A DNA stretch of 64,000 nt from Candidatus Methanosuratincola subterraneus (GCA_004028775.1 RXGA01000002.1:186001-250000), one strand, 5' to 3'; numbered from the stretch's first letter, positions 12,826-54,727 are shown. A program made the numbers and translations. The notes: generated by a model not told the origin, from the sequence alone.

Positions 12826-12838
12826 CTCTTTCGCCTCC

Positions 12839-14299
12839 TTAACGGATACCCAGCTTACCCGGGTTCATTATGTTGTTTGGATCAAGCATGTCCTTTATCT
12901 TGGTCATCAGGTACAGGTAACCAGCGTCCGCGACTGCGTTGAGCTCGTTCTGGTACTCAACTGGCGGCTTGTACGGTAGCATTCCCTCCGGTAGACCAGC
13001 CCTGACGCACTCGACCATTGCATCCCTAGCAGCCTGGACTGATGCCGGGTCGCGCTTGTTGAATGGTGTCATGCACCTGAGCATGCCGTAGTGTGCACCC
13101 TGGTAGTCGGTGAACCTTGTCGCAGGCGACAGGCCGTGCCTGATGTAGATCTCCTTCCACTTCTCGTAGAGGATAGGCCAGCTCTTGCACGGTGCGAAGG
13201 TGCCTGGCCACGCAATTCCTCCTCCGCAGGACTTGGAGTAGTTCTTGGTTGACCCCACGATCCTGCTCGGTAGCTCGGTCCTTCCCTTCTTCGCCTCCGG
13301 CGGGTACTCGAAGTCGATGAGCTTCGTTCCCTTAGCCCTCTCCTTCGCGACCACTTCCTTCCACATCTTCCTCTTGTAGTCGAGCTCCTCCTGGCTCCAA
13401 CCGGATATAACGGTGTAGCTGAAGAACTCTGGCGCATCAGCAGGCTTCGGGCTGTACGGGAATACGATCGGTATCTGAGCGAGCCACCAGCTGACTGCGG
13501 TCACTTCGTCGCAGAGCGAGTAGTGGCGCCATCTGACCATGTACTTGGTGATGTCCTCTGCGCTGGCAGCAGCGATTGTAAGGACGTCCTTGTACGGGCG
13601 GATCGGGAAGATCCAGACTCCCAGCTTCGTCACAATGCCGGTTGTCCCGAGCCATCCAGTGAAGAGTCCATCCATGCGGGGCAGCGGCAAGAACGAGTGC
13701 CATGAGTCGGAGTAGGCACAGGATCCAATCTTTGCCACTTCGCCAGTCGGCAGGACTACTTCCATGCTGCTCATCAGCTGGCTGTTAATACCCAACCTAC
13801 CGTTGAGGTGACCAATCCCATGGTTGATTGCCATCGCGAGCACGGATGCCGACGGAGGATGAACGCCCCACCCGAACTCGAATCCCTTGCTGAATTCCTC
13901 CCCCTTCCACTGTGGGTTTGTAGCCTTAAGTGCAGCCGAGAATGCAGCGTGGCTTACACCGGGCTCTATCACAGCATAGCATGTCTCAGGGTCGATCTTG
14001 AGGATCCTGTCCATCTTCTTGAGATCCATTATGATTCCGCCTTCCTCTGGTACGCAGAGGCCACCGATGTTAGTGCCGTTGCAGTACGGAATCACCGGAA
14101 TCTTGCGGTGGTTCGCGAGTCTCAAGACGCGCTGGACTTCGGTCACTGTCTTCGGCATGACGACATAGTCAGGCATCCTTGGTTCGGCCCAAGTCATGTC
14201 CCAAGTGTATGGCTGCAGGTCGGCTTCTTCATTGCTCACATACTCTGGACCAACTATCTGTTCCAGATTTGCAAGTATTTCCTTGTTTCCTCTAGCCAT
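12839..14299 (-). CDS. GlcD-like FAD-linked oxidase (2-hydroxyacid dehydrogenase-type subunit)
   Basis: 486 residues. An N-terminal FAD-binding PCMH domain (about 40-225, with the pyrophosphate loop around CNGTNIGGLCVPEEGG) and a C-terminal FAD-oxidase domain ending in the typical LDPNNIMNPGKLG. Relatives oxidise glycolate or D-lactate, but in a methanogen with the HdrD-like partner directly downstream the physiological electron donor is open. It is the first gene of a two-gene operon whose promoter lies just upstream. Family certain; substrate not determined. Confidence 0.85.
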   Translation of the reverse strand: MARGNKEILANLEQIVGPEYVSNEEADLQPYTWDMTWAEPRMPDYVVMPKTVTEVQRVLRLANHRKIPVIPYCNGTNIGGLCVPEEGGIIMDLKKMDRILKIDPETCYAVIEPGVSHAAFSAALKATNPQWKGEEFSKGFEFGWGVHPPSASVLAMAINHGIGHLNGRLGINSQLMSSMEVVLPTGEVAKIGSCAYSDSWHSFLPLPRMDGLFTGWLGTTGIVTKLGVWIFPIRPYKDVLTIAAASAEDITKYMVRWRHYSLCDEVTAVSWWLAQIPIVFPYSPKPADAPEFFSYTVISGWSQEELDYKRKMWKEVVAKERAKGTKLIDFEYPPEAKKGRTELPSRIVGSTKNYSKSCGGGIAWPGTFAPCKSWPILYEKWKEIYIRHGLSPATRFTDYQGAHYGMLRCMTPFNKRDPASVQAARDAMVECVRAGLPEGMLPYKPPVEYQNELNAVADAGYLYLMTKIKDMLDPNNIMNPGKLGIR

Positions 14300-30517: not shown

Positions 30518-31013
30518 GAGTTTCGCCACCAAGGTGAGCGCTCAGACGCCTGTCCTCATCTTGCATCTCGCTCTGGAGGTCCCTCACTATCCTGGCGATC
30601 GCGGTAAGGAACAGCTGCTCGACTGCCCTACCAAGCGAGGCGCCAAGCTCATCGCAGAGATCCGACACCCTTTCGGAATTCCTGTCCAAGAAGGAGTAAA
30701 GCGACTCTGCCATCGCCTGGTATAGGTCTTCCGCAAGCTCAGGGCTATTTTCATCCCCGATCGCGATCGAGAACTCGAGCGCATACAGGTCAGGACCCTT
30801 CCCTATCCCTGGTATCCGCCTGACCAGGTTTCCATTCACTAACTTTTCCAGGCGGTCTGATGCGTCCTTCTTGCTGATCAAGAGCGCTTCGGACATCTGA
30901 TCCATAGTCAAAGGGCCCTTCTGAAGGGACAGAAGGACTTCGCGCGACTTTTCATCAAGCAGTGCGCTGCAGACCTCTGCAAGTTTTTTGTCATGAACCA
31001 CTAGGCATGCCAT
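30510..31013 (-). CDS. HTH transcriptional regulator at the end of the mcrD-mcrC-mmp5 operon
   Basis: 167 residues from the ATG at 31011-31013. ArsR/MarR-like winged helix in the first 80 residues (LTMDQMSEALLISKKDASDRLEKLVNGNLV) and a helical C-terminal half of unknown role. Its start overlaps the end of mmp5 by more than 20 bases, so it is translationally coupled to mcrD-mcrC-mmp5. A regulator of the Mcr genes is the natural guess; nothing in the sequence shows which promoter it binds. Confidence 0.72.
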   Translation of the reverse strand: MACLVVHDKKLAEVCSALLDEKSREVLLSLQKGPLTMDQMSEALLISKKDASDRLEKLVNGNLVRRIPGIGKGPDLYALEFSIAIGDENSPELAEDLYQAMAESLYSFLDRNSERVSDLCDELGASLGRAVEQLFLTAIARIVRDLQSEMQDEDRRLSAHLGGETPT

Positions 31014-31455
31014 TCTTATCACCAAGAGACTTGAGGAATGACCTTATCTTTGAGACCATTACCCTGGCGTCCTCCTCTGTGCGAGGGTAGGGGACTAAAA
31101 CGACCGGAATCCCCCTACGCTTCAGCAGGTAGCGGATGAACTCGTTGGTCCTGCCACAGCTGGCACAGCCGAACAGGGCTTCGGGATCCTCCACCACGAT
31201 TGCTGCATCAGCATCCTCTATGAGCGGCCCGATGAGAGCCAGGCGACCCCTCACACCCGACGGGACTTCTATAGCAGCATACTTCAGCCCTCTCCTGGGG
31301 AACTCTGGAGTGATGTTCATCGGAGGCGAGTCTATCTCCGGCTTCGAGAGGTTCTTGGCGACCTCCTCGCCGAGACCGAGTGGAATATGACCTTCTCGCG
31401 TCACGAGGTCGTACAGGATAAGACTGTTGGGCGGGAAGATGAAAACTTTAGCCAA
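30991..31455 (-). CDS. mmp5: Methanogenesis marker protein 5
   Basis: 154 residues. It matches the methanogenesis marker 5 family, which is found only in organisms with Mcr: IFPPNSLILYDLV opening, IDSPPMNITPE, GLKYAAIEVPSGVRGRLALIGPLIEDADAAIVV and GCASCGRTNEFI with a CxxC. Biochemical function is unknown; the family often lies with mcrC and mmp6. It overlaps mcrC by eight bases and the HTH gene by over 20. Confidence 0.88.
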   Translation of the reverse strand: MAKVFIFPPNSLILYDLVTREGHIPLGLGEEVAKNLSKPEIDSPPMNITPEFPRRGLKYAAIEVPSGVRGRLALIGPLIEDADAAIVVEDPEALFGCASCGRTNEFIRYLLKRRGIPVVLVPYPRTEEDARVMVSKIRSFLKSLGDKNGMPSGS

Positions 31456-32108: not shown

Positions 32109-32438
32109 CTATTCACCTTTCAGTCCGCGTAGGTAGTCCTTAACAGTCGGCCTTGGCTTTGTGAATTGACCTACTCTGACATCGTAGCCATAAGGCATTG
32201 ACTGGTCGCATACGGGCTTCAGCTTTGCTATTACATCTTCAGGCGTGAAGCCGCTTTTCACCACAATTATGAACCTGCCCGTTAGGCGCCCGCCGCCTGA
32301 AAACCTTGGGCCGTGGGTCAGAACCTCTTCGACACCCTCGGTATCGCGCATTATCGCGGCCAAATCCATTGCCTTCTTGTCGCTCATCAGTCGCCTCGGC
32401 ATGACCTCGATTTCCCTGAAATGAGCTTGCTGGGACAT
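32109..32438 (-). CDS. mcrD: Mcr operon protein McrD (short)
   Basis: 109 residues, shorter than the usual 140-170. Conserved parts are the opening IEVMPRRLMS, the VLTHGPR segment and the ending FGYDVRVGQFTKPRPTVKDYL-type block (here PYGYDVRVGQFTKPRPTV). McrD binds immature Mcr and is thought to help assembly or cofactor delivery. ATG start with GTGATCC just ahead. First gene of the leftward operon; the next gene starts within its last codons. Confidence 0.88.
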   Translation of the reverse strand: MSQQAHFREIEVMPRRLMSDKKAMDLAAIMRDTEGVEEVLTHGPRFSGGGRLTGRFIIVVKSGFTPEDVIAKLKPVCDQSMPYGYDVRVGQFTKPRPTVKDYLRGLKGE

Positions 32439-32506
32439 CCTGGATCACTAACCTATAAATTAATCAGGGATTTAATAATGTAGTGCTACCGCAGGAGTGT
32501 CCCCCT
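32439..32506. promoter_or_regulatory. Compact divergent promoter between mcrD and mmp3
   Basis: Only about 70 bases separate the two start codons. Rightward, GATTTAATAATG (about 32467-32478) can act as TATA for mmp3; leftward, TTTATAGG (complement of CCTATAAA near 32451-32458) can act for mcrD. The two transcription complexes would overlap, which would couple expression of the two arms of the Mcr activation locus. Confidence 0.5.
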
Positions 32507-34042
32507 TTGAGAATAATTATCGACGGAAAAGAGTACGAGGCAGGCGAAAGAGAGAGCCTTGGCGGGATGCTGGAAAGGGCTGGCATCCCTGTCAAAGAGG
32601 GGTGCATAATCGCAGTCAAGAAGAAGGTAAAGGAAGAGAGCGTTGAGACAGACCTCTTTGAGATTGAAACGACTAGGGGCCGGATGATACTGAGGGTAGA
32701 ATGCGGCGATCTCCTCGAGCGATGGAGAAAATCCTGCCACGGCTACAAGGGGGCAGGTGTGAGGTGGACCACGAAGGATGCGGTAGTTTTCGGTTCCACC
32801 GTATTCGACGCTCAGCCCTCGATGGAACCGGTGAGCCTCGGGAGGTACGAGGTGACGCTCAGCCTTTCAGGGCTAAGCAAGGAGAACACGCTGCTGGTCT
32901 TCTCAAAGCGGCCGCACTCGGCTTCCTATTACCCGCCCAAGGGATGCGCTGTCCTGGGCAGGATAGTCTATGGAAGGCACTTGGTCGGGCTGCTCAGGAT
33001 GGGGGACAGGATCATTTCCATCAGGCCAGTACTCGAGACAAAGGAGCTTGCAAAGTCGCTGCTCAAGGGCGAAGCAGGGATGCCACTTGAGGAAGGTGAC
33101 AAGATCTTCACCAAAGTCGAGGTAGAGCTCGACTTTGACTCGCCAGTCTGCGGGGAGCAGGCATACAACGTGCTTAACGACGGCGTCATCAAGGTCTCGT
33201 CAGAGACCAGCAGTTACATCTGCAACAGCGAGAAGAAGGTCATTGCCCTCCCGGTGGAGAAGCTGGGGGAAAGGAAGAGGGGCAGCCTCACGATACGGAA
33301 TTCTGGTGAGAATGTGGGGGCAGCATACATCTACAAGAGGGAGGCTCCGCTGGCTCAGTCGCATACCATAGTCGGCAGAGTCAACGGAGGGATCGAGCTA
33401 GTGGACTTGGCAAAAGAAGGGGATTGCCTTGAGGTGTCGGTCAGTCCTCCGAGGATCGACCTGCTCGGGAAGAATGTTTCTGAGGCTAGATCCGCACTCG
33501 ACTCAATAGGTGTTGAGTTGGAGACCGAAGGATCGCCTGCGGATAACGATTCGGGCGTAATTGTGGAGCATGAGCCGCAGAACTCGCTAGAGATTTACAA
33601 GAAGCGGACTGTCAAGTGCAAGGCGATAAGACCGGAGAGCATCCTTAAAATCAGGCTTTATGAGGACAAAGCGCCAAACTCAGTCAGGTACTTCAGGGCG
33701 GTCACTGGGCTCGAGCGGAAGGCATTCGGGAAATTGAGGGTTTACTTTGCGACCCCGAAGATGGAGATGATCCTATTCAAGGGAAATGAAGAGATCGCAA
33801 AAGGGCTCACGCCGGAGAATACGCCCAGCGATAAGGTATTCGCCGGGTCGATAGGGGTCACTAACACTGTGAAGAAGTTTGCAGGGATGATAGGGATCAG
33901 GATGACGGACAGCGAGAAGTTCGGCCCAACTGCCGAGAGCTTCGACGGGACGAATCTGATCGGAGAGGTGCAAGGAGGGCTGGACCTGCTCAGGAGGCTT
34001 AAGGAGGACAGCGAGCTGTATATCCAGGAGCTGAGAGGATGA
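32507..34042 (+). CDS. mmp3: Methanogenesis marker protein 3 (Mcr activation complex)
   Basis: 511 residues from the TTG at 32507 (GGAG ahead); a GTG at 32483 is in frame. An N-terminal ubiquitin-like or beta-grasp segment (IIIDGKEYEAGERESL) and a C-terminal part resembling cyclophilin-type folds (SVRYFRAVTGL, GSIGVTNTV, VQGGLDLLRRLK). Matches methanogenesis marker 3, reported as a subunit of the Mcr activation complex. First gene of the rightward activation operon; four-base overlap with mmp6. Confidence 0.88.
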   Translation: MRIIIDGKEYEAGERESLGGMLERAGIPVKEGCIIAVKKKVKEESVETDLFEIETTRGRMILRVECGDLLERWRKSCHGYKGAGVRWTTKDAVVFGSTVFDAQPSMEPVSLGRYEVTLSLSGLSKENTLLVFSKRPHSASYYPPKGCAVLGRIVYGRHLVGLLRMGDRIISIRPVLETKELAKSLLKGEAGMPLEEGDKIFTKVEVELDFDSPVCGEQAYNVLNDGVIKVSSETSSYICNSEKKVIALPVEKLGERKRGSLTIRNSGENVGAAYIYKREAPLAQSHTIVGRVNGGIELVDLAKEGDCLEVSVSPPRIDLLGKNVSEARSALDSIGVELETEGSPADNDSGVIVEHEPQNSLEIYKKRTVKCKAIRPESILKIRLYEDKAPNSVRYFRAVTGLERKAFGKLRVYFATPKMEMILFKGNEEIAKGLTPENTPSDKVFAGSIGVTNTVKKFAGMIGIRMTDSEKFGPTAESFDGTNLIGEVQGGLDLLRRLKEDSELYIQELRG

Positions 34043-34458
34043 TCAAGACATTCCTTGTCGTCCTTTCTCCGGACTCTAATCTGACCCCCTCAATGCTCGC
34101 CGAGAAGGCTGCCCAGATAGGGGGGATAGACTACAAGGAGACCTGCTATGGCCTGCTCGTGGAGGGGGAGGAGGAGAAGGTCAGGTCCGTCCTTGAGGAC
34201 TTGAGGGCGCTAGACCCGAAAAAGGTATTCTACAAGCAGCGGGGTTACAGGATCGGCGACGAGAGGATCTGCAGGGCAAAGAGGGGCGGGGGCCCAAGGC
34301 CAGGCTACCACATGCTGAGCTCCGAGCGCGAGGTTTTGAAGAATGTTTCGAAGGCGCTGGAGGAGGAGGGAAAGAAGGTCCCCTCCGAGAGGCCGAAGAC
34401 CAAGCTCGACGTGGAGACGCTGAAGAGGGTTATCAAAGAAGAGGGTGGGAAAGATTAG
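34039..34458 (+). CDS. mmp6: Methanogenesis marker protein 6
   Basis: 139 residues. The marker 6 family signature is clear: an ACT-like N-terminus and the run RGYRIGDERICRAKRGGGPRPG with its cysteine and glycine-rich turn. Only found in Mcr-containing archaea; biochemical role unknown. It overlaps mmp3 by four bases and mmp17 by 14, so translation is coupled. Confidence 0.88.
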   Translation: MIKTFLVVLSPDSNLTPSMLAEKAAQIGGIDYKETCYGLLVEGEEEKVRSVLEDLRALDPKKVFYKQRGYRIGDERICRAKRGGGPRPGYHMLSSEREVLKNVSKALEEEGKKVPSERPKTKLDVETLKRVIKEEGGKD

Positions 34459-35011
34459 GATATTCGTGGATTCATCAGACGAGCTGGGCGGGCAGCAGTA
34501 CAAGTACATCGCAGAGAAGAGCGTTGAGGACTTGGGGCTCGGAGGGAGCATAGATTCGATTGACATGCTGATAAGGGTGGAGGAGCCCGTCTTCATAATA
34601 GTCATAAGGTACAAGGAGGTAACTGGCAAGAGCACGCTCGGCGATGCGTCCTACATAGACTCGAGAAAGAACGGCATCAGGATAACCCTGAGCAGCGAGA
34701 TCTTCCTTGGGGACGCCCTCAAGGCGCTCTGGTCGAAGTATGGGAGAGACAGGGTTGAGCAGATAGGCAGGCTTGAGATCTTTGTTTCGGGCGCAGATCC
34801 AGAGGAGGTCAAGGGCATAAGGCTCAGCGAGAAGGGCTACGACCTCGAGTCAAGAATAAACGAGCTCGCGACCAGGATTATTCCGGAAGGGTTCAGGGTA
34901 AGGAATTCGCTGAAAAAGAGAGGAATGATAACAATAATCGCCTCGGAGGATCCGATAAAGGAAAGCTGGAGAGAGCTTGCGGCAAGGCTGGAGGGGGATT
35001 CGCATGCTTAA
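34445..35011 (+). CDS. mmp17: Methanogenesis marker protein 17 (Mcr activation complex)
   Basis: 188 residues, GTG start inside the end of mmp6. It matches methanogenesis marker 17 in length and pattern (IFVDSSDELGGQQYKYIAEK near the start; IIPEGFRVRNSLKKRGM and a C-terminal helix). Mmp17 has been reported as a component of the Mcr activation complex with McrC, Mmp3, Mmp7 and AtwA; all five are in this window. Overlaps mmp7 by eight bases. Confidence 0.87.
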   Translation: MGKIRIFVDSSDELGGQQYKYIAEKSVEDLGLGGSIDSIDMLIRVEEPVFIIVIRYKEVTGKSTLGDASYIDSRKNGIRITLSSEIFLGDALKALWSKYGRDRVEQIGRLEIFVSGADPEEVKGIRLSEKGYDLESRINELATRIIPEGFRVRNSLKKRGMITIIASEDPIKESWRELAARLEGDSHA

Positions 35012-35906
35012 GTACCTGCTCTTCGAGGGGGGCCTTTACAAGCACGAAAGGATACTCGAGTTCCTTGAGGATGTAGGTGGCTTTCTAGTCCAGAAGACCG
35101 TGGTAGGGCTCGATCTCATCATGAACTTGGCCGTCCCAGAGGAAGAGAACGAACGCCTCTCAGCGATCGTCTCAGAATTGAAGGGCAAGCTGACCCCTGC
35201 GCCGCTCATCGGCACCGAGATTGGGGTCGTTGCGCCAACACTCTCCAGGCACCACCTCCCGCACCCGGCCTGCGACATCGCGGAGAACCTGAGGAGGCAC
35301 GGGGCGAAGACGAACATAATCGGTCTCTCGAGGGGTGTCGGGCAGAAGATAGTGCACACCACCATGAAGGAAAAGGAGCTCATAGAGGAGCACGACATTG
35401 CGGTATTCACACTTGGGAACTTTGAAAAGTGCCTTATGAAAAAGACCAAGCTCTTCTCGGAGATCGAGGTGCCAGTCATTGTCACTGGCGGGCCACTCAT
35501 GAAAAGCATCCCCGGGGCAGAGGCTTATGTCGGCGGCATAGGCAGGTACCCTGAGAGGGCTAGGACGGGCGAGTCGATCGAGAAACTCAGGGAGGTCTCC
35601 AGGGTCGCTGGCGAGGTAGTCGAGCAAAGGAGGAGGGAGATGGATCTGGACCCGCTCATCGTGGACCCGATCATCGTGAAGGCAGAGATTGAGAGGCAGG
35701 TTCCTGAGTCCACAGAAGCCCTCTCCCCGAACCCGGTCACGCTCAAAATAGACGGTGTCAGGGTGAAGCTGCCTTACGACGATTATAAGGATAAGATTGG
35801 CGGCATAATCATCGGGGACAAGAAACTGTCCGACTTCGCGTTGATAAAGAGATCGCTTATGAGAAACTACATCCTGGTGAAAGTGCTTCCGAAGTCGATG
35901 TTTTGA
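35004..35906 (+). CDS. mmp7: Methanogenesis marker protein 7 (Mcr activation complex)
   Basis: 300 residues from the ATG at 35004 (an upstream in-frame Met gives nine more). Matches methanogenesis marker 7: LKYLLFEGGLYKHE opening, GTEIGVVAPTLSRHHLPHPACDIAENLRR, GLSRGVGQKIVHTTMKEKELIEEHDIAV (shown in parts), GNFEKCL. The cysteines in HPACD and EKCL are candidates for metal-cluster ligands; that is inference. Reported subunit of the Mcr activation complex. 13 bases upstream of the AtwA paralogue. Confidence 0.88.
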   Translation: MLKYLLFEGGLYKHERILEFLEDVGGFLVQKTVVGLDLIMNLAVPEEENERLSAIVSELKGKLTPAPLIGTEIGVVAPTLSRHHLPHPACDIAENLRRHGAKTNIIGLSRGVGQKIVHTTMKEKELIEEHDIAVFTLGNFEKCLMKKTKLFSEIEVPVIVTGGPLMKSIPGAEAYVGGIGRYPERARTGESIEKLREVSRVAGEVVEQRRREMDLDPLIVDPIIVKAEIERQVPESTEALSPNPVTLKIDGVRVKLPYDDYKDKIGGIIIGDKKLSDFALIKRSLMRNYILVKVLPKSMF

Positions 35907-35919
35907 AGGGGGATGTTTT

Positions 35920-37599
35920 TTGCTGCTTGAAGTAGTTGACCTCACAAAGAGATACCCCGAGAGGGGCATCGTCGCCCTTGACGGAATCTCTTTTTCAGTA
36001 AGGGAAGGAGAAGTGGTCGGAATTGTGGGCAGGAGCGGCGCGGGCAAGAGCACACTCTTGAGGATACTCAGGGGAGTCGAGAGCTTTGACGAAGGATCGG
36101 TGAGCTTCGATGGGATCAGAATAACGCCATCATCCCCGAAGGGGGATATGCTGGAGCTTCAGCGGAAGACTGCCATACAACTCCAGAGGAGCTTCGGGCT
36201 TTGGCCCGACAGTGCATTGGACAACGTGGTTAGGGCGCTGAGGTATTCCGACGGCTTCGACGAGACTATTCCAGAGGCTGAAGGGGAGTACAGGGAGTAC
36301 CGGGAGAGGGCGATGGAGATACTCAGGGTGGTCGGGCTGGACAAGAGGGCAGACCTATGGTCTGAGGTCCTTAGCGGGGGCGAGAAGCAGAGGCTGATCA
36401 TCGCGAGGCAGATAGCAAGAAAGCCGAAGCTTCTGCTGCTGGACGAGCCTGGCACAATGACTTGCCCAGCAACAAGGGAAGCGCTCTTGGATGCCCTCAA
36501 GCGAGCAAACAGGGAGCTCGGTATTGCGATCCTCTTCGCGTCCCACAACCCCCAGACGCACAGATCGCTCTCGGACAGGACGATCCTCATCGACAAGGGC
36601 AAGCTCAAAGAGGACGGGAACACGGAATCCGTGCTCGCCAAGTTCCTATCCGGGATCGAGGATCCGCTCGAGAAGACCAGGATAGATGGTCCCGTAGTGT
36701 TGAAGATAGAGGGGGCATGCAAGACATACAAGCTCATACCTTATGGCCTGGTCTTCGAGATGGCTGAGACCAACCTAGAGTTCAGGAGGGGAGAGATAAC
36801 AGGCATAGTCGGCCCTTCCGGAGCCGGCAAGACAGTAGTCCTGAGGATGCTCGCCGGTCTCGAGCTTCCTGACAAGGGCGAGGTGAAGATAACCTACAAG
36901 GGCGAATGGGTTGTGCTCGGAAAGCTCGGGAGGAAAAACATGCTAGCGAGGAGGCGCATAGGCATACTCCACCAGGAGTTCGACTTGCCATACTTCGCAA
37001 GGGTGCTAGACCTCTTCGCGGCAAAGCTTGGGCTCAAGGACTATGATCTGCTCGAGGCCGCGCTGAGGAGGGGAAAAAGAGCTGGACTCTCTGAGGAGGT
37101 AGTTGATGCGCTAAGCAGGGTTTCGGAGCTCCCCGAAGGCGAGATGAAGGCAAAGCTGGGCGAGATGGGGATAAGCAACGATCTGCTGAGGGAACTTTTC
37201 AAATCCAAAGACCCAGAAAAGGCAAGGGACGTAGCTCTCACGGTGCTTGAGGCAGTGGGCCTGAGCCCAGGGATCTTGGACCGCAACGTCTACGAGCTGA
37301 GCGGGGGCGAGAAGATAAGGGTGGCCCTTGCGCTTTCGCTGGTCTCTAACCCAAAGGTGCTCATCCTCGACGAGCCCTTCGGCGACCTGGATCCGATAAC
37401 CCTGAGGCTAGTCGCGAATTCACTCAAGATGGTCAAGAAGAAGCTCAGGCCTGCCATTGTGCTTGTGAGCCACCAGCTTGACCTCCTTGAAGAGGTTTCT
37501 GACAGGGCAGTGCTGATGCTTAACGGGAAAGTTGTGATGGACGGTGACCCGTCCTCAGTTGTGAGCAAGTTCTTGGAGGAGATAGAACATGGAATTTGA
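35920..37599 (+). CDS. AtwA-like double ABC ATPase lacking the Cys-rich insert
   Basis: 559 residues, TTG start after GGGGG. Two ABC ATPase domains: Walker A GRSGAGKST (37-45) and GPSGAGKT; signature LSGGEK (151-156) and a second; Walker B LLLLDEPGTM and LILDEPFGDLDP. The architecture is that of Mcr component A2 (AtwA). Unlike the canonical copy at 53102, there is no cysteine-rich zinc-ribbon insert after residue 60; the region reads SVSFDGIRITPSSP instead. The second domain has an unusual helical insert (about 375-430). It lies inside the mmp3-6-17-7 operon and overlaps the next gene by 11 bases, so it is probably the ATPase of a specialised activation complex or of an alternative electron input. 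Confidence 0.85.
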   Translation: MLLEVVDLTKRYPERGIVALDGISFSVREGEVVGIVGRSGAGKSTLLRILRGVESFDEGSVSFDGIRITPSSPKGDMLELQRKTAIQLQRSFGLWPDSALDNVVRALRYSDGFDETIPEAEGEYREYRERAMEILRVVGLDKRADLWSEVLSGGEKQRLIIARQIARKPKLLLLDEPGTMTCPATREALLDALKRANRELGIAILFASHNPQTHRSLSDRTILIDKGKLKEDGNTESVLAKFLSGIEDPLEKTRIDGPVVLKIEGACKTYKLIPYGLVFEMAETNLEFRRGEITGIVGPSGAGKTVVLRMLAGLELPDKGEVKITYKGEWVVLGKLGRKNMLARRRIGILHQEFDLPYFARVLDLFAAKLGLKDYDLLEAALRRGKRAGLSEEVVDALSRVSELPEGEMKAKLGEMGISNDLLRELFKSKDPEKARDVALTVLEAVGLSPGILDRNVYELSGGEKIRVALALSLVSNPKVLILDEPFGDLDPITLRLVANSLKMVKKKLRPAIVLVSHQLDLLEEVSDRAVLMLNGKVVMDGDPSSVVSKFLEEIEHGI

Positions 37600-39487
37600 A
37601 GTGGTATTCCTGCCCGAAGGCAAGAGGTGCAAAGTGCCTGAGAAGACAACCCTATTGTCGGCAGCCCTCAAGGCAGAGGTGGACCTTGCGGCGATTTGCG
37701 GGGGCAAGGGCTACTGCGGGAAGTGCCTTGTTGAGGTGATAGACGGGAAGGTCTCGCCGCTGACGGATCATGAGAAGAAGAGGGTGCCCAAGGAGAAGCT
37801 GGAAAAGAACTACAGGCTCGCCTGCCAGACGTACATTGAGGGCGAAGTCACGATAAGGGTGCCTGATCAGAGCAGGGTGGGCAAACAGAGGCTCGTCATC
37901 ATGGGGAAGGAGCCGCCTGTGCGGATCATGAGCAACGTCGAGAAATTATATCTTGAGCTTAGCCCGCCGTCCCTAGAGGATCCTACAGCGGATGACGAAA
38001 GGCTGTTGGCCGGACTATCGTCGAAAGGATATCCAAATCTCAAAATCGACATGCCTGTTGCCAGGGAGATCCCCAAGATCCTGAGGGAGTCGGGCTGGAA
38101 AGTGACGGCGGTAATCATTGGAAGGAAGGAGATCATTGCCTTAGAAAAGGGGGACACAACTGCCAGGAAGTACGGGCTGGCAGTGGACATAGGCACCACG
38201 AAGCTGGCGGTTTTCATCGTAGACCTCAATGACGGCACAATAGTTTATGCTGACGGGACGATGAACCCTCAGATAAAGTTCGGCGAGGACGTGATCTCCA
38301 GGATCAATTACGCGTCCCAAGGGAAAGGGCAGCTTGAGGAGATACGCAGCGCGATAGTTGAAGGCATAAACAGCCTCATGGACGCAGGGATCGCTGAGGT
38401 CGAGATTGCCAGAGATGAGGTATACGAGGCAGTCCTTGTTGGCAACACTGCCATGCACCACCTATTTGCAGGAGTGGATGTGAAGAGCCTTGGGCTTGCG
38501 CCTTACGCAGCAGGGATCGGCAGGTCCTTCGATTGCAAGGCAAGGGATGCTGGCATTGCAATCAACCCAGCAGGGAATGTGCATCTACTACCGAACGTGG
38601 CAGGCTTTGTGGGAGCAGATGCGATAGCAGACATTCTCGCATCGAGGCTTCACGAGAAGGAGAGGCTTACGCTGCTGATGGATGTAGGCACAAACACAGA
38701 GGTGATGCTAGGAAGCAAGACGGGCATATTGGCGTGCTCGACTGCGTCTGGTCCCGCTTTTGAGGGGGCGCACATAAGGTGCGGTATGAGGGCTGCAAGC
38801 GGCGCCATAGAGAAGGTGTGGATAGACTCCGACTTTAGGGCATCCTATAAGACGATTGATGACAAGAAGCCGCGGGGGATATGCGGCTCGGGCATGATCG
38901 ACGCTGTCGCCGAGATGCTTAAGGTAGGATTGATAGACACATCGGGTAGGATCCAGCAGGCGGGCAATAGTGTCCGGGACGGGGAGGGGGGGAGGGAGTT
39001 CGTCCTCGTCCCCAAGGAGGAGACCGAGACAGGCAAGGAGGACATAGTCATTACCCAGGACGACATCAGGGAGATACAGAAGGCCAAGGCAGCAATCTAT
39101 GCAGGATTCATGACACTGGTCAGGAAAGGGGGGCTAAACAGGGGGGACCTCGCTGAAATAATAATAGCAGGGGCTTTCGGCAACTACATTGACCCTAAGA
39201 ACGCAAGGATAATCGGGATGATACCGGAGCTACCCCTTGAAAAAATATCATTCACCGGCAACACAGCCGGATCGGGTGCGAGGCTCTGCCTTAAGTCGCT
39301 CGAGGTGAGGCACGAAGCCCAGATGGTGGCCTCGAAGGTAAAATATATAGAACTTGCGGCACAGCCGATCTTTGAAGAAGAGTACATCAACGCGATGTAC
39401 ATGCCGAATAGTAAGCTGGAGGACTTCCCTGAGACCATGGAAGAGGTGAGGGCACCGAGGATGGTAAGGCGCTATGTCAGAAGATGA
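37589..39487 (+). CDS. RACo-like [2Fe-2S]/ASKHA ATPase (corrinoid-activator family)
   Basis: 632 residues. N-terminal plant-type [2Fe-2S] ferredoxin domain with Cys37, 43, 46 and 79, a linker/middle domain (about 100-185) and a C-terminal DUF4445/ASKHA ATPase domain beginning YGLAVDIGTTKLAVFIVDL (about 191) with DVGTNTEVMLG and GAFGNYIDP. RACo proteins use ATP to drive an uphill one-electron reduction of Co(II) corrinoid proteins. Two readings: activation of corrinoid proteins for methyl-CoM synthesis from methylated compounds, or delivery of low-potential electrons to Mcr activation, since the gene overlaps the AtwA paralogue by 11 bases and the next gene by 14. Confidence 0.85.
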   Translation: MEFEVVFLPEGKRCKVPEKTTLLSAALKAEVDLAAICGGKGYCGKCLVEVIDGKVSPLTDHEKKRVPKEKLEKNYRLACQTYIEGEVTIRVPDQSRVGKQRLVIMGKEPPVRIMSNVEKLYLELSPPSLEDPTADDERLLAGLSSKGYPNLKIDMPVAREIPKILRESGWKVTAVIIGRKEIIALEKGDTTARKYGLAVDIGTTKLAVFIVDLNDGTIVYADGTMNPQIKFGEDVISRINYASQGKGQLEEIRSAIVEGINSLMDAGIAEVEIARDEVYEAVLVGNTAMHHLFAGVDVKSLGLAPYAAGIGRSFDCKARDAGIAINPAGNVHLLPNVAGFVGADAIADILASRLHEKERLTLLMDVGTNTEVMLGSKTGILACSTASGPAFEGAHIRCGMRAASGAIEKVWIDSDFRASYKTIDDKKPRGICGSGMIDAVAEMLKVGLIDTSGRIQQAGNSVRDGEGGREFVLVPKEETETGKEDIVITQDDIREIQKAKAAIYAGFMTLVRKGGLNRGDLAEIIIAGAFGNYIDPKNARIIGMIPELPLEKISFTGNTAGSGARLCLKSLEVRHEAQMVASKVKYIELAAQPIFEEEYINAMYMPNSKLEDFPETMEEVRAPRMVRRYVRR

Positions 39488-40019
39488 CTTTGTAAGAGCG
39501 CTTAAGGGGATAGAAGGAGTAATTTGCGTAAAGGAGCTGACAGAGGAGGAGAAGTCAGAGGTCTTGAGGCTCGAAGAGCAGGCTGAAAAGGGCGTCCTGA
39601 TGGGCCTTTGTAGGGGGATAAACATAGGCGTAAGGGAGGCGCTCAAGAAGGGGAGGGTCTTTGCCTGTGCCACTGACAGGTGCTTCAAGTGGCCCCAGTC
39701 GTCATACATAAAGATAGTTTGCGGGGAAGAAGTGATAGGAGAGGACGTGAATGAAGAGGCGAGGCTCGAGAGGCTCAAGTGCGAGGGGAACATAGTCGCA
39801 GGGACTCTGGTCTTCTACAGGGACAAGATGAGGCTCTTCAAGGACAGGAGGGACGAGACGATGGTGCAGATATTGCCGCTCGAATTGGGGGAGATCCTCG
39901 GCAAAAAGGCGGTGGTCGGGAGCCCCTCTCCCCCGGCAGACCTCTTCCTGAAAAGCAGGATGGGGATAGACACGGAGTGCCGCGACCTGGGGACTGTCCT
40001 GATTGGTATAGAAGAATAG
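39474..40019 (+). CDS. Cysteine-rich protein at the end of the Mcr activation operon
   Basis: 181 residues; I do not recognise the family. Seven cysteines (18, 46, 65, 70, 83, 103, 169), with C65-ATDR-C70 the closest pair, suggest a metal or Fe-S site. No membrane segment. It overlaps the RACo-like gene by 14 bases and is the last gene of the operon beginning at mmp3; a 175-base gap follows. A role as partner of the RACo-like protein or of the activation complex is inferred from coupling only. Confidence 0.72.
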   Translation: MSEDDFVRALKGIEGVICVKELTEEEKSEVLRLEEQAEKGVLMGLCRGINIGVREALKKGRVFACATDRCFKWPQSSYIKIVCGEEVIGEDVNEEARLERLKCEGNIVAGTLVFYRDKMRLFKDRRDETMVQILPLELGEILGKKAVVGSPSPPADLFLKSRMGIDTECRDLGTVLIGIEE

Positions 40020-40194
40020 AGGCTTCGATCCGCAGGCACTAGTTCATGGGCATTAATCCTTCAGAAACCGCTCTGCTTTTTTCAGCAAATCAACTAAGTG
40101 CGAACTGCATCAGGCAACCATGCAGGAATTGGAGGGCGACAATGCTCTAAACTGATATAAGCATTCATGATCATAATTATACAGAGTGATCCTA

Positions 40195-40698
40195 TTGTGG
40201 AAGTCGATCACAAATTTCTTTGAAGGCGCACCTGCGAAACTGAAGGTAGCCAGGCTCATGGTCGAACTCGGATTCAGCATCAATGAGGCCGGCAGAATCG
40301 TCTGCGGCAATGTGGAGATCTCAGACGCTGACCTTTCGAGGGCTGCTGGCGTGGACAGGAGGGTTGTCAGGCAGACTGTGGAGGAGATAATGAAGGATCC
40401 GCTGATGAAGAGGATCTTTTCAGGAATAAAGCCAGCAGGAAGCTTTCTGAAAGAGATAGCCCCTGCCCTAGGATACGGGGTTGTCGAAGTCAGGGCAAAG
40501 TCAGATGCTGTCGGTGTGATATTCCATGTCACAAAATACATCTCAGAGGCAGGAATATCGATCAGGCAGATACTTGCAGAGGATCCGGAGCTCAACCCGG
40601 ATCCGAAGTTGATGATAATCACCGACACCAAGGTTCCGGGCGAGGTCATCTCGAAGCTGCTAACCATCCCGACTGTCACGAAAGTCAGCGTGAGCTGA
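40195..40698 (+). CDS. HTH/ACT-domain predicted amino-acid regulator (COG2150-like)
   Basis: 167 residues from the TTG at 40195, preceded by GTGATC; a GTG at 40186 is in frame. N-terminal helical DNA-binding-like part (ISDADLSRAAGVDRRVVRQTVEEI) and a C-terminal ACT domain (about 90-167: VEVRAKSDAVGVIFHVTKYISEAGISIRQI and IITDTKVPGEVISKL, in parts). Predicted regulators of this type bind amino acids. It faces the trpB2 gene tail-to-tail, so a tryptophan or general amino-acid role is possible. Confidence 0.75.
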   Translation: MWKSITNFFEGAPAKLKVARLMVELGFSINEAGRIVCGNVEISDADLSRAAGVDRRVVRQTVEEIMKDPLMKRIFSGIKPAGSFLKEIAPALGYGVVEVRAKSDAVGVIFHVTKYISEAGISIRQILAEDPELNPDPKLMIITDTKVPGEVISKLLTIPTVTKVSVS

Positions 40699-49694: not shown

Positions 49695-49796
49695 ACTTCG
49701 GTTTGGTTTGTCGGGTTTGCCCCCTCGAGCAGAAAGTATTATTTTGGACAAGGAAGACGGTATATCGAAGGATGTCTGTAGAGACTGGTGAAGCAG

Positions 49797-51038
49797 ATGG
49801 TCAGGATAGCGCAAATATCATGCGGCTCTGAGTACAGCGGGATTCAGGCAGAGATCGAAAAGGCAGCAAAGATCGTCGGCGGGCAGATATTCGTGCCAGA
49901 GGTGGATGTATCGGAGATCAGGACGGTTGAGGACGAGCTCGGTTTCCATGTGGCAAGCCCGGGCCTGAGGGTCATGATGGCAAGGGCGAAGGCCATAGTG
50001 GAGGGGAGGGTCGACGCAGATGGTGTCTTCATCGCGACCTGCTTCAGGTGTGCTGAGGGCGCACTGGTGAGGAGTGTAGTCAGGAGGTATATCCAGAGCC
50101 AGACAAAGATCCCAGTAGTGACCTATTCATTCACGGAGAGGACGAAAGCAGGGGCGCTGCTACTGCGCATGGAGGCTCTGGTGAACATCATAGACAAGAA
50201 GCCTCTCTTCGCAAGGATGAAGCAGGAGGGGATAACTGCCGGAATCGACTCTGGTTCCACGACGACAAAGGCCGTTGTTATGAAGGACAACGAGATCATA
50301 GGGCACGGATGGGTCCCCACCACCAGTGTCCTCGACTCGGGTATGACGGCACTGAACCAAGCGCTCAAGGAGGCGGGAATAGATGAGAGCAGGATTGAGG
50401 GGATCGGGGTGACCGGCTACGGAAGAACCATACTTAAGGAGAAATACAAGGCACAGCTCGCAATGGAGGAGGTCTCGACATGCTCCAAAGGGGCGCTGTT
50501 CCTGACCGACAAGCAGAGGGGGGACGCCACTGTCATAGACATAGGAGGCATGGACAACAAGGCGGTAACGCTTTATGACAGCATCCCTGACAGCTTCACC
50601 GTCGGAGGGGTCTGCGCAGGCGCCTCAGGGAGGTTCCTCGAAACCACGGCGAAAAGGCTCGGCGTTCCGATAGAGCAGTTCGGGGACCTCGCGATGAAAG
50701 GAGACTGGAAGGCAGTGCCAATGAATGCTTATTGCATTGTCTTCGGGCTTCAAGACCTTGTCGCGGGTCTTGCAGGAGGGGCAAAGCCGGAGGATGCGGC
50801 GGCAGCTGCGTGCCACAGCGTGGCCGAGCAGGTATTTGAGCAGCAGCTCCAGGAGATAGACATCAGGTACCCGATAATTCAGGTCGGATCGACCGCGCTT
50901 GTCAAGGGGCTGGTCAAGGCGCTCTCCGAGATACTCAGCGTGGAGATGATAGTCCCTGAAAAGCCTAATCTGATCGGGTGCGTCGGCGCAGCTGTGATGG
51001 TATCCGGGATGAAAGAGCTCGAGGAGACCAGAAGATAG
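49797..51038 (+). CDS. mmp15: Methanogenesis marker protein 15 (BadF/BcrA-like ATPase)
   Basis: 413 residues from the ATG at 49797 (GGTGA six bases ahead; GTG 49788 in frame). An N-terminal region of about 140 residues with cysteines (ATCFRCAEG) and an ASKHA ATPase of the BadF/BadG/BcrA/HgdC type ([40 protein letters not shown]). HgdC-type activators drive ATP-dependent electron transfer through a [4Fe-4S] held by the GGVCAGASG cysteine. Matches methanogenesis marker 15, restricted to Mcr organisms. Start of the mmp15-ycaO-tfuA-atwA run. Confidence 0.9.
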
Positions 51039-51059
51039 GCATTGTAAGTAAGGACGGGT

Positions 51060-52283
51060 TTGCCGCACATGAACCTGAGATCGGTTCCCAAGGGATACAC
51101 AGCGGGGACGCACAGGGAGGTCCCCCCGATTAAGACGCTGGAGCTGGTCAACAGGGTCAAGGACAAGGCTGGTATAACCAGGGTTGCTGAGATCACAGGG
51201 CTGGACCGAATCGGGATACCAATCTTCACCTCGATAAGGCCGATGGCTTCAGAGGGTGCTGTAACGATCTACACGGGCAAGGGCTACTCCCAAGAGGAGG
51301 CGGAAGTTTCGGCAATAATGGAGGGCATAGAGCGGTTTTCAGCGGAGCCAAGGGGTTTTACGCTGCTGAGGGGTTCATACAGGGATCTCACCTATGAAAG
51401 GGAAGCCCTTGACCCAAACATGCTGATACTGCCCCGCAGGTACCAATTTTCAGAAGAGATAGAGTGGGTTGAAGGGCATTCGCTCACGCGGAACGTACCG
51501 ATACTCGTCCCAGCAGAGGCGGTCTTCCACCCGTACAGCAGGCACAATCAGCTCTTCCGGACCAACACCAACGGACTCGCCGTCGGAAATGCGGTTGAGG
51601 AGGCGATTGTGCACGGGCTTATGGAGGTGATTGAGAGGGACGCATGGTCCCTGTTCGAAGCTGGGAGGCTGCAGGGGAGGGACCTCGACCTTGCCCATTG
51701 CGGCAGTCCGATGGTCAGGTCGATACTTGAAAAGCTCGAGAATGCAGGAATCGGGGTCTTTGCGAAGGACATAACCTCGGATCTAAGGATCCCGACGGTG
51801 GCAGTAGCCGTCGACGACGAGCTGACGAGGGATCCCGCGCTCCTCTCCCTCGGGGTGGGGACACATCTTGTGGCTGAGATAGCAGCGGTGAGGGCTTTGA
51901 CAGAGGCGGTCCAGAGCAGGCTGACCACCATCCACGGGACAAGGGAGGACACCGCCAAGGCCGAGTTCGCGAGGAGGATTGGGTACGATAGAATGAAGAG
52001 GATAAACAGGAAGTGGTTCTCCCCGAGCCCAGAAAGAGTAGGCCTGGACGAGCTGGGGTCATTTTCGGGGGATGATTTCCTAGAGGACATCAGGTATACG
52101 CTAGAGAGGCTGAGGGATGCTGGACTCCGAGAGGTCATAGTCGTCGACCTCACTAGGGGGGAGACAGGAATACCGGCGGTCAGGGTTATAGTCCCCGGAC
52201 TCGAGGTCTACGCGTTGGACAAGGAGAGGGCGGGTAGAAGACTGTCGGCACATTCAGGAACGCAGTACTATAGTGGAGTGTGA
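51060..52283 (+). CDS. ycaO: YcaO-family thioamidation enzyme (methanogenesis marker 1)
   Basis: 407 residues from TTG 51060 (or ATG 51069). YcaO ATP-binding glutamates are in SAIMEGIERFSAEP and GLMEVIERDAW. It activates the peptide backbone of McrA with ATP for conversion of the active-site glycine to thioglycine, together with TfuA, whose gene follows 19-28 bases later. The McrA target context is conserved in this genome (Gly451). Confidence 0.92.
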   Translation: MPHMNLRSVPKGYTAGTHREVPPIKTLELVNRVKDKAGITRVAEITGLDRIGIPIFTSIRPMASEGAVTIYTGKGYSQEEAEVSAIMEGIERFSAEPRGFTLLRGSYRDLTYEREALDPNMLILPRRYQFSEEIEWVEGHSLTRNVPILVPAEAVFHPYSRHNQLFRTNTNGLAVGNAVEEAIVHGLMEVIERDAWSLFEAGRLQGRDLDLAHCGSPMVRSILEKLENAGIGVFAKDITSDLRIPTVAVAVDDELTRDPALLSLGVGTHLVAEIAAVRALTEAVQSRLTTIHGTREDTAKAEFARRIGYDRMKRINRKWFSPSPERVGLDELGSFSGDDFLEDIRYTLERLRDAGLREVIVVDLTRGETGIPAVRVIVPGLEVYALDKERAGRRLSAHSGTQYYSGV

Positions 52284-52311
52284 CTTCCAAGGCTAGTAAA
52301 CGGTGCATGAG

Positions 52312-52962
52312 ATGAGATTGATCGTATTCCTTGGACCGAGCCTGCCATGGGAAGAGGCTCGGAGGGTTCTAAGTGATGCGGAATACCTGCCGCCTGCAGC
52401 CAGGGGAGACATCGCCAGGGCCGCTGGGGCAGGAGCGGAGGCAATAGCCCTCATCGACGGGGTCTTCTACCAGCAGGCTGCCGTGTCTCATCGAGAAATA
52501 CTAAAAGCGTTAGAGGACGGAGTGAAGGTCTTCGGTGGCTCTAGCATGGGCGCGCTCAGGGCATCCGAGCTGGATGTATACGGCATGATCGGGGTCGGTA
52601 CGATTTACGGGTGGTACAAGTCAGGAAAGATAAGGTCTGATGATGAGGTCGCCCTAGCTTTCCACCCCGAGTCCTTCAAGCCGCTCTCTGAGCCTCTCGT
52701 GAACATCAGGGCAACTCTTGCGAAGGCACTTGTTTCAGGCATCATAGCCCAAGAGGAGCATGACTTAATCCTCGCAGCCGCAAAGGAGGTCCCCTTCCAG
52801 CTTAGAAACTACACGAGGATACTCCAGAGCGCGGTTCACAGAGGGCTCAGCAGCAAGAGGGCGGGGGAAATACTCGAACCGATAAAAGGGGTGCGGGTTG
52901 ACCTGAAGAGGGAGGATGCAATCAAAGTCCTAGAACGAGTCGGGAAGTCACAGAACCGATGA
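52312..52962 (+). CDS. tfuA: TfuA-like protein, partner of YcaO
   Basis: 216 residues from the ATG at 52312 (GTG 52303 also possible). Matches TfuA: VFLGPSLPWEEARRVL near the start and GSSMGALRASELDVYGMIGVG in the middle, both typical. TfuA assists YcaO in thioamidation, perhaps by delivering sulfur. It directly follows ycaO; a 139-base AT-rich gap with its own TATA-like sequence precedes atwA. Confidence 0.9.
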   Translation: MRLIVFLGPSLPWEEARRVLSDAEYLPPAARGDIARAAGAGAEAIALIDGVFYQQAAVSHREILKALEDGVKVFGGSSMGALRASELDVYGMIGVGTIYGWYKSGKIRSDDEVALAFHPESFKPLSEPLVNIRATLAKALVSGIIAQEEHDLILAAAKEVPFQLRNYTRILQSAVHRGLSSKRAGEILEPIKGVRVDLKREDAIKVLERVGKSQNR

Positions 52963-53101: not shown

Positions 53102-54727
53102 ATGGGCGTTCCTTTCATAGAAATCAGGAATGTATCAAAGTCATTCAACGGGAATAAAGTATTGGACAATGTTTCCCTCACCATAGATGAAGGAGAGAGG
53201 GTCGGCGTAATAGGGAAGAGCGGATCGGGGAAGACTGTGCTACTCTCGATGCTGAAGGGCATAAGGGAGTACAAGCCGGAATCTGGTCACGTAATCTTCC
53301 ATGTAGCGGTGTGCGAGCACTGCCAGACTGTAGAGGGACCAAGTTGGGCAAAAAAGAGGTGCCCACACTGCTGTCCCCACTGCCTAAAAGAGATGGAGAT
53401 GGCGGACGTAGACATTTACGGCGAGGATCCCAAGAGCAAATGGCTGAGACAGCGCATAGCGATCATGTTCCAGAGAACATTCGCACTCTACGGCAGCCTT
53501 ACAGTCTACGAGAACCTAGTCGAGGCACTCAGCAAGGTATCCTCAGAGGACGCGACCAAGAAGGCGCTTGAGATAGCCAAAGACATCGGTCTGGCAAACA
53601 GGCTCTTGCATGCCGCAAGGGATCTGAGCGGCGGCGAGAAGCAGAGGGTTGTCCTGGGCAGGCAGTTGGCGATAAAGCCTCTTCTACTGCTGGCTGACGA
53701 GCCCACTGGGACGCTGGATCCCCTCAATGCAGATATGATCCACAGGATCATAAAGAGGGAGACCGGGCCAGGAAAGAGCACACTCATAGTCACCTCGCAC
53801 CTCCCTGGCGCAATAGAAGAACTCTGCGAAAAGGCAGTGCTGCTCGAAGATGGTAAGATTAGTTTGATGGGGAATCCCCATGAAGTCGCCACCAAGTTCC
53901 TGTCTAGGCTCGTACCGGAGGAGATCCCGAAGCCGCCCCAGCTTGGGGATGTAGTGCTGAGGGTGAAAGATCTTAAGAAGTACTACTTCTCCATAGACAA
54001 GGGAGTTGTCAAGGCGCTGGATGGGGTCACTTTCGAGGTGAGGGAGAGGGAGATCTTCGGGATAATAGGGCTGAGCGGCGCAGGCAAGACCACACTCTCC
54101 AGGGCGATAGTCGGCGTGACGCAGCCTACATCAGGCACAATCGAGCTAAAGATCGGCGATGAGTGGGTCAACATGCTGGAGCCCGGACCGACGGGCAGAG
54201 GCAGGGCCACGCCGTTCATCGGGCTTCTGCACCAAGAGTACGCACTTTACCCCCACAGGACGGTGCAGGAGAACCTGACCGATGCAATAGGCCTTGAGCT
54301 TCCGGACGAGTTCGCCAGGTTCAAGGCACAGAGCGTGTTGACAGCTGCGGGGTTCGATGAGGCAACTATTGAAAGGACGCTCTCCAAGTACCCGGATGAG
54401 CTGAGTGAGGGGGAAAGACACAGGGTTGCCCTCGCGCAGGTGCTGATAAAGGAGCCAATAATAGTGCTCCTTGATGAGCCCTCGGGCACGATGGATCCGA
54501 TAACCCAGCAGGACGTTGCAAAGTCGATAAAGAACGCCAGGAACGAGCTCGGTCAGACATTTGTAATAATTTCTCATGATATGGGGTTCGTGGAGAACAC
54601 ATGCGATGATGCCATACTGATGAGGAACGGCAAAGTAGTCGGCAGGGGCAAGCCCTCAGATGTGGCAAAGGAGCTTACCCCGGAGGAGAAAGACGAGCTA
54701 ATGAGTTCCAAAAACGGACTCCCTTGA
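53102..54727 (+). CDS. atwA: Mcr activation ATPase AtwA (component A2), canonical form
   Basis: 541 residues. Two ABC ATPase domains with Walker A GKSGSGKT (38-45) and GLSGAGKTT, signatures LSGGEKQRV and LSEGERHRV, Walker B LLLLADEPTGTLDP and VLLDEPSGTMDP. After strand FHVAV it carries a cysteine-rich zinc-ribbon insert with Cys71, 74, 87, 90, 91 and 94 (tandem CPHC), as in known AtwA proteins. AtwA powers Mcr reductive activation. Its last 30 bases overlap the convergent mmp2 gene. A paralogue without the insert is at 35920. Confidence 0.93.
   Translation: MGVPFIEIRNVSKSFNGNKVLDNVSLTIDEGERVGVIGKSGSGKTVLLSMLKGIREYKPESGHVIFHVAVCEHCQTVEGPSWAKKRCPHCCPHCLKEMEMADVDIYGEDPKSKWLRQRIAIMFQRTFALYGSLTVYENLVEALSKVSSEDATKKALEIAKDIGLANRLLHAARDLSGGEKQRVVLGRQLAIKPLLLLADEPTGTLDPLNADMIHRIIKRETGPGKSTLIVTSHLPGAIEELCEKAVLLEDGKISLMGNPHEVATKFLSRLVPEEIPKPPQLGDVVLRVKDLKKYYFSIDKGVVKALDGVTFEVREREIFGIIGLSGAGKTTLSRAIVGVTQPTSGTIELKIGDEWVNMLEPGPTGRGRATPFIGLLHQEYALYPHRTVQENLTDAIGLELPDEFARFKAQSVLTAAGFDEATIERTLSKYPDELSEGERHRVALAQVLIKEPIIVLLDEPSGTMDPITQQDVAKSIKNARNELGQTFVIISHDMGFVENTCDDAILMRNGKVVGRGKPSDVAKELTPEEKDELMSSKNGLP

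What the first reader, a model, noticed from the sequence alone, without database searches (positions are those of the whole stretch)
37589..39487. RACo-like ATP-driven electron injector coupled to the Mcr activation operon
A full [2Fe-2S]-plus-ASKHA protein overlaps the AtwA paralogue by 11 bases. The family performs uphill one-electron reduction with ATP, exactly what Ni(II)-F430 activation needs. It may be a dedicated electron donor to the activation complex, not only a corrinoid activator. That would be a new role for the family.
Basis: partly seen in the sequence, partly recalled or inferred. Interest (0 to 1): 0.75.

Follow-up and report, generated by a model that had tools for sequence, protein, structure and literature searches.

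The report
B12-protein activator in methane-enzyme operon
In a little-studied order of methane-making archaea, a gene for an ATP-driven protein that normally re-reduces vitamin-B12 enzymes is locked into the operon that switches on the methane-forming enzyme; it most likely still serves the B12 enzymes, but a role in switching on the methane enzyme itself is not excluded and can be tested.

Summary
Window 37589-39487 (+) encodes a complete 632-aa RACo-type protein (Fer2, linker, middle and ASKHA domains) that overlaps an AtwA/A2 paralogue by 11 bases inside mmp3-mmp6-mmp17-mmp7-A2p-RACo-p181. This order of genes is present in all 22 Methanomethylicales genomes where it could be checked, and these RACos form one clade.

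The interpretation, a dedicated electron donor to Mcr, is not established and is the less likely reading. Seven RamA-less genomes of at least 90% completeness have this RACo as their only DUF4445 activase. Corrinoid methyl carriers are present in all of them; where inspected they have no activase beside them. In the window's genome the one other activase (RamA) sits beside methanol MtaBC. Mcr-bearing relatives (20 Methanomassiliicoccales loci, a sister order, M. jannaschii) carry the activation genes without a RACo among them. Many outside relatives adjoin corrinoid methyltransferase genes, and the cobalt-contact loop resembles theirs. I favour a housekeeping corrinoid activator, co-expressed with Mcr activation (0.6).

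Unexpected: p181 (39474-40019), overlapping RACo by 14 bases, founds an undescribed family. Its members sit beside RamA, near some corrinoid-linked RACos, and near the Mcr cluster of Methanomassiliicoccales, which has no RACo.

The parts
37589..39487 (+). RACo-type reductive activator: N-terminal [2Fe-2S] (C37, C43, C46, C79), linker, middle and C-terminal ASKHA domains
   Evidence: Pfam, 3zyy alignment, order-wide alignment
39474..40019 (+). p181: undescribed 181-aa family, overlaps RACo by 14 bases; paralogue of p198 divergent to RamA in the same genome
   Evidence: no Pfam/NCBIfam match; 32% identity to p198; confident model without a PDB match
35920..37599 (+). A2p: AtwA/A2 paralogue with two ABC domains, lacks the cysteine-rich insert of canonical A2; overlaps RACo by 11 bases
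34977..35906 (+). Mmp7
   Evidence: TIGR03274, 391 bits, above cut-off
34445..35011 (+). Mmp17
   Evidence: TIGR03291, above cut-off
34039..34458 (+). Mmp6
   Evidence: TIGR03272, above cut-off
32483..34042 (+). Mmp3
   Evidence: TIGR03268, 504 bits, above cut-off
32109..32438 (-). McrD (divergent unit)
   Evidence: PF02505
31448..32116 (-). McrC (divergent unit)
   Evidence: TIGR03264, above cut-off
30991..31455 (-). Mmp5 (divergent unit)
   Evidence: TIGR03271, above cut-off
53102..54727 (+). canonical Mcr component A2, after mmp15, ycaO and tfuA (49788-52962)
   Evidence: TIGR03269, 726.8 bits; TIGR03286; TIGR03266 and NF033432

Best explanation
This is a RACo-type, ATP-dependent reductive activator of corrinoid proteins, fixed in the Mcr activation operon of Methanomethylicales. 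Inferred mechanism, by analogy with RACo and RamA: the N-terminal [2Fe-2S] takes an electron from a ferredoxin-like donor; the ASKHA domain docks on a Co(II) corrinoid methyl carrier (MtmC-type, the carriers paired with URO-D methyltransferases, the carrier paired with a MetE-like protein); ATP binding drives Co(II) to Co(I), so that methyl transfer to CoM can resume. Placing the gene in the Mcr activation operon makes both reductive start-up steps of methyl-reducing methanogenesis (cobalt carrier and nickel F430) come up together. p181 is probably an accessory factor of these activases. Shown: domains, cluster ligands, order-wide synteny, genome inventories. Inferred: the target, the electron donor, and the role of p181.
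For: Seven RamA-less genomes of at least 90% completeness (G001, G003, G004, G016, G020, G021, G022) have the Mcr-operon RACo as their only PF14574 protein but carry PF02607 corrinoid proteins. In the four examined closely (G004, G016, G020, G022) these sit beside MtmB, URO-D or MetE-like/MtrH genes with no activase nearby; G001 has one URO-D/corrinoid pair. No CODH/ACS corrinoid subunit over most of its length is found in the order (one short hit, G010), and MtrA is found in one genome of 23, so methyltransferase carriers are the main corrinoid targets. In the window's genome the other activase is RamA-type, beside MtaB-MtaC. Two of three sister-order RACos lie by corrinoid or MtrH genes, as do Jordarchaeal and other relatives. 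The cobalt-contact loop reads STAS-GPAFEG in the clade; corrinoid-linked relatives read mostly SCAS, some STAS. p181-type genes track DUF4445 and not MCR_C outside the order (14 of 15, p=2e-7). DUF4445 is absent from M. jannaschii, which has MCR_C.
Against: No member of the Mcr-operon clade lies next to a corrinoid gene. The clade is separate from the CoFeSP activator, and its closest relatives there (L210, L228) show no methyltransferase within 6 kb. Order-wide translational coupling to A2p suggests more than loose co-regulation. RACo is kept in all RamA-bearing genomes, evolving about as fast as A2p by pairwise identity, although RamA might cover the carriers. p181-type genes also lie near the RACo-less Mcr cluster of Methanomassiliicoccales.
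Confidence: 0.6

Rival explanations
1. Dedicated Mcr electron donor: RACo docks on the Mmp7/Mmp17 surface and passes electrons, coupled to ATP, into the nitrogenase-like clusters that lead to F430.
For: Fixed position after mmp7-A2p in 22 of 22 checkable genomes with conserved overlap; separate clade; the physiological donor of the Mcr activation complex is unknown and auxiliary factors are thought to be missing (PMC12176620); retained where RamA exists.
Against: The same activation genes occur without a RACo among them in 20 of 20 Methanomassiliicoccales loci and 5 of 5 genomes of the sister order, two of which have no DUF4445 found; it would leave the carriers of RamA-less genomes without a known activator; the RACo cluster, about -340 mV, is more oxidising than F430, about -650 mV (PMC4934906, PMC12176620); the cobalt-contact loop is conserved.
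Confidence: 0.15
2. Shared activase: RACo reduces corrinoid carriers and also feeds the Mcr activation complex, with p181 or A2p as adaptor.
For: p181-type genes lie near Mcr clusters in two phyla and beside RamA or RACo of corrinoid loci; order-wide operon.
Against: p181 occurs near the Methanomassiliicoccales Mcr cluster without RACo, so the two need not act together; no interface evidence; relations deep in the p181 tree are unresolved.
Confidence: 0.15
3. RACo serves a third, unrecognised metal centre and is only co-regulated with the Mcr activation genes.
For: 26 of 46 archaeal RACo loci outside the Mcr operon have none of the marker genes within 6 kb.
Against: Every target reported in the papers read is a corrinoid protein; the marker set was small and some contigs short, so 'none' overstates absence.
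Confidence: 0.1

Closest known systems
RACo of Carboxydothermus hydrogenoformans (PDB 3zyy, 4c1n), activator of CoFeSP
   Same: Full-length domain order and [2Fe-2S] ligands; match over residues 2-615 at 2e-126
   Different: Genome lacks CODH/ACS; cobalt ligand Ser398 aligns to Ala386 with Ser387 beside it; different clade; neighbours are Mcr activation genes
RamA (TIGR04270)
   Same: DUF4445 ASKHA core; a RamA-type homologue is present in the same genome beside MtaBC
   Different: Has N-terminal [2Fe-2S] instead of C-terminal 2x[4Fe-4S]; 151.7 bits against a cut-off of 500
Mcr activation complex of Methanococcus maripaludis (McrC, Mmp3, Mmp7, Mmp17, A2; PMC12176620)
   Same: Same mmp genes in the operon; ATP-dependent reductive activation
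   Different: RACo and p181 are not named among its parts; there the ATPase is A2, and electrons pass through three nitrogenase-like clusters

Membership tests
RACo-type DUF4445 reductive activators | Fer2 + RACo_linker + Raco_middle + RACo_C_ter in order | tested here: met
RACo-type DUF4445 reductive activators | Four cysteine ligands of an N-terminal [2Fe-2S] | tested here: met
   CX5CX2C plus C79, invariant in the order
RACo-type DUF4445 reductive activators | Cobalt-contact loop before GPAFEG as in corrinoid-linked relatives | tested here: met
   STAS in 20 of 20; corrinoid-linked members SCAS 28, STAS 4. The Ser398 position itself is Ala, and the RamA rows also lack Ser there
RACo-type DUF4445 reductive activators | ATP-dependent Co(II) to Co(I) reduction of a partner corrinoid protein | not testable with these tools
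   needs biochemistry; partners are present in trans
AcsV equivalog (NF040756) | Curated cut-off of 800 bits and a CoFeSP partner | tested here: not met
   519 bits; no full PF03599 protein in the order
RamA (TIGR04270) | Cut-off of 500 bits and C-terminal ferredoxin-like clusters | tested here: not met
   151.7 bits; no C-terminal Cys clusters
Mcr activation complex component | Encoded with the activation genes | tested here: met
   22 of 22 checkable Methanomethylicales genomes
Mcr activation complex component | Linked to the activation genes in other Mcr-bearing lineages | tested here: not met
   absent from the cluster in 20 Methanomassiliicoccales loci and the sister order; no DUF4445 in M. 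jannaschii
Mcr activation complex component | Co-purifies with McrC/Mmp7/Mmp17 | not testable with these tools
   needs pull-down

The most novel reading that the evidence does not exclude
In Methanomethylicales, RACo with p181 and the zinc-loop-less A2 paralogue forms an ATP-driven module that supplies electrons to the Mcr activation complex (alone or besides corrinoid carriers): the first nickel-tetrapyrrole target of the DUF4445 family and a physiological donor for F430 activation.
Probability: 0.25. Interest if true: 0.8.

Novelty: new variant of a known kind. Interest (0 to 1): 0.5.

Why it matters
How F430 in Mcr receives its electron in the cell is an open question (PMC12176620). An order-wide operon that joins a known ATP-driven one-electron reductase to the activation genes gives a concrete candidate and a simple decision between two targets. 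Even on the ordinary reading it supplies a candidate for the missing corrinoid activator of RamA-less Methanomethylicales, and it brings out an undescribed companion family (p181) shared by corrinoid activases and Mcr clusters.

Tried and rejected
CODH/ACS CoFeSP as target: rejected, no CdhD in the order apart from one short hit. MtrA as general target: rejected, one genome of 23. Ser398 as a diagnostic residue: rejected, the RamA rows and most corrinoid-linked RACos have Ala at that position too. Fold of p181: confident model (pLDDT 90) but no PDB match at E<=0.001, so no function inferred. p181 beside a B12-binding protein in two genomes (G021, G022): the neighbour is a degenerate corrinoid protein, so only suggestive. 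p181 tree: deep branches unresolved. Linkage of RACo to Mcr genes in Methanomassiliicoccales: none found; their RACo-type genes lie on other contigs than Mmp7. Literature searches found no report of DUF4445 in an Mcr operon, within the open-licence library only.

Full report
Observation. The window carries a complete RACo-type gene at 37589-39487 (+). Pfam finds Fer2, RACo_linker, Raco_middle and RACo_C_ter in order, and the solved RACo 3zyy aligns over residues 2-615. The gene upstream, 35920-37599, is an A2 (AtwA) paralogue: 321.6 bits against a cut-off of 517.1. The canonical A2 (726.8 bits) lies at 53102-54727 behind mmp15, ycaO and tfuA. A2p lacks the cysteine-rich N-terminal insert (C71-C94) that A2 has; in M. 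maripaludis the A2 N-terminal loop binds zinc. A2p and RACo overlap by 11 bases; RACo and the next gene, p181, overlap by 14.

Host and conservation. The window is part of a 1.51-Mb genome. Contigs of its order-mates are named Candidatus Methanomethylicota, Methanomethylicales or Methanomethylicus, with matching contig lengths (for example G005 C24, 114195 bases = Ca. Methanomethylicus mesodigestus V1). All 23 genomes of the order have a RACo-type gene. In 22 of 22 where the contig reaches upstream it follows mmp7 and A2p directly; p181 follows it in 21 of 23. The overlaps are conserved in most, judged on longest-ORF starts. This is a real operon, not chance.

Tree. A 47-row tree puts the Mcr-operon RACos in one clade (bootstrap 95, SH-aLRT 89), sister to two RACos without recognised methyltransferase neighbours (L210 from an Mcr-bearing genome of the same class; L228), and apart from the CoFeSP activator 3zyy. 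A 78-row tree also joins the Mcr-operon RACos in one group (93), but places L210 and L228 unresolved near the root. A single vertically inherited clade says nothing by itself about the target.

Who else can activate the corrinoids? The window's genome has one other DUF4445 protein, RamA-type with C-terminal cysteine clusters, next to MtaB and MtaC. RamA is found in 11 of 23 genomes. It is missing from seven genomes of at least 90% completeness (G001, G003, G004, G016, G020, G021, G022). All 23 carry corrinoid proteins. In the RamA-less genomes examined these are MtmC beside two MtmB genes (G004, G016, G022), carriers beside URO-D methyltransferases, and a carrier beside MetE-like and MtrH genes. 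None has an activase next to it. G001 has a single URO-D/carrier pair. Published Methanomethylicia genomes are likewise described as methyl-reducing without a complete Mtr complex (PMC10033731). CODH/ACS corrinoid subunits are absent apart from one short hit, and MtrA occurs once. In these genomes the Mcr-operon RACo is thus the only recognised activase for carriers that, by established knowledge of the family, need one. This is the main reason for the favoured explanation.

What Mcr needs elsewhere. Of 398 genomes of the phylum, MCR_C/Mmp7 hits at convincing scores lie in this order and in one other family of the same class (f5). There Mmp3, Mmp5, Mmp6, Mmp7, Mmp17, A2, A2p and McrC are present without a RACo among them. 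Three f5 genomes have a RACo elsewhere: two beside corrinoid or MtrH genes, one beside an ABC transporter. In the other two (67% and 72% complete) none was found. In 20 of 20 Methanomassiliicoccales-type loci in Thermoplasmatota the cluster has no RACo; their RACo-type genes lie on other contigs than Mmp7. M. jannaschii has MCR_C and no DUF4445. Mcr activation in general therefore does not depend on RACo; a lineage-specific addition remains possible.

Mechanistic fit. In the CoFeSP-RACo complex, Ser398 of RACo ligates cobalt, the [2Fe-2S] potential is about -340 mV, and ATP binding enables the electron transfer (PMC4934906). The uphill step thus depends on a specific contact with the cobalt. 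F430 as free ligand is at about -650 mV and is approached through three nitrogenase-like clusters in McrC and Mmp7; ferredoxin is only suggested as physiological donor (PMC12176620). In the Mcr-operon clade the loop that carries Ser398 reads S-T-A-S-GPAFEG: the aligned residue is Ala and the next is Ser. Corrinoid-linked relatives read SCAS (28) or STAS (4). The loop looks like that of corrinoid activators, which mildly favours a corrinoid target; no interface was modelled.

p181. This 181-aa protein has no Pfam or NCBIfam match. It is a paralogue (32%) of p198, which is divergent to RamA in the same genome. Relatives lie by the corrinoid-linked RACo of a Jordarchaeal contig and by an MtrH-linked RACo. 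Outside the order, 14 of 15 p181-bearing genomes of the phylum sample also have DUF4445 and none has Mcr (p=2e-7; genomes are related, so the p-value is indicative). Yet all 30 Methanomassiliicoccales-type genomes searched have it, usually near the Mcr cluster; in ten of the loci read it lies directly by McrC, between mcrC and mmp3. p181 is therefore linked to both systems and is the best argument left for a shared module. AlphaFold gives a confident model with no PDB match.

Verdict. The dedicated-donor reading is possible but not favoured (0.15; 0.25 with any electron role for Mcr). The favoured reading is a housekeeping corrinoid activator co-expressed with Mcr activation (0.6). No literature report of DUF4445 in an Mcr operon was found in the open library searched.

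Limits. Genes were called by longest ORF, so start sites and some small genes are uncertain. Corrinoid neighbourhoods were detected with few marker families, so 'none' labels (26 of 46 archaeal loci) overstate absence. Many genomes are incomplete MAGs. The root of the RACo tree is unknown.

Noticed in passing
L264-L283 (Methanomassiliicoccales-type genomes): p181-family gene on the opposite strand between mcrC and mmp3 (ten loci) or near A2; 30 of 30 such genomes carry the family.
   Followed up: partly
window 35920-37599 and 53102-54727: Two A2-type proteins; only the distal one has the cysteine-rich N-terminal insert, and A2p also occurs near McrD in the sister order.
   Followed up: partly
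L206:10288-11655 and 11670-13046 (+): Two tandem MtmB-type methyltransferases in the window's genome read through without any in-frame stop, so without an amber pyrrolysine codon.
   Followed up: no
L194:10035-10616, L205:9241-9825, L204:2717-3358: B12-binding-type protein conserved in the order with EGH in place of the usual DxHxxG motif; p181 lies beside it in G021 and G022.
   Followed up: partly
L032:1265-3190 (+): G002 has a second RACo, beside an MtaC-type gene, which groups with Jordarchaeal RACos and so looks horizontally acquired.
   Followed up: partly
G016 C3:33074-33475: The one MtrA match in the order.
   Followed up: no
window 39474-40698: p181 is followed by a TrpY-family regulator in most members of the order, a possible regulator of the region.
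   Followed up: no
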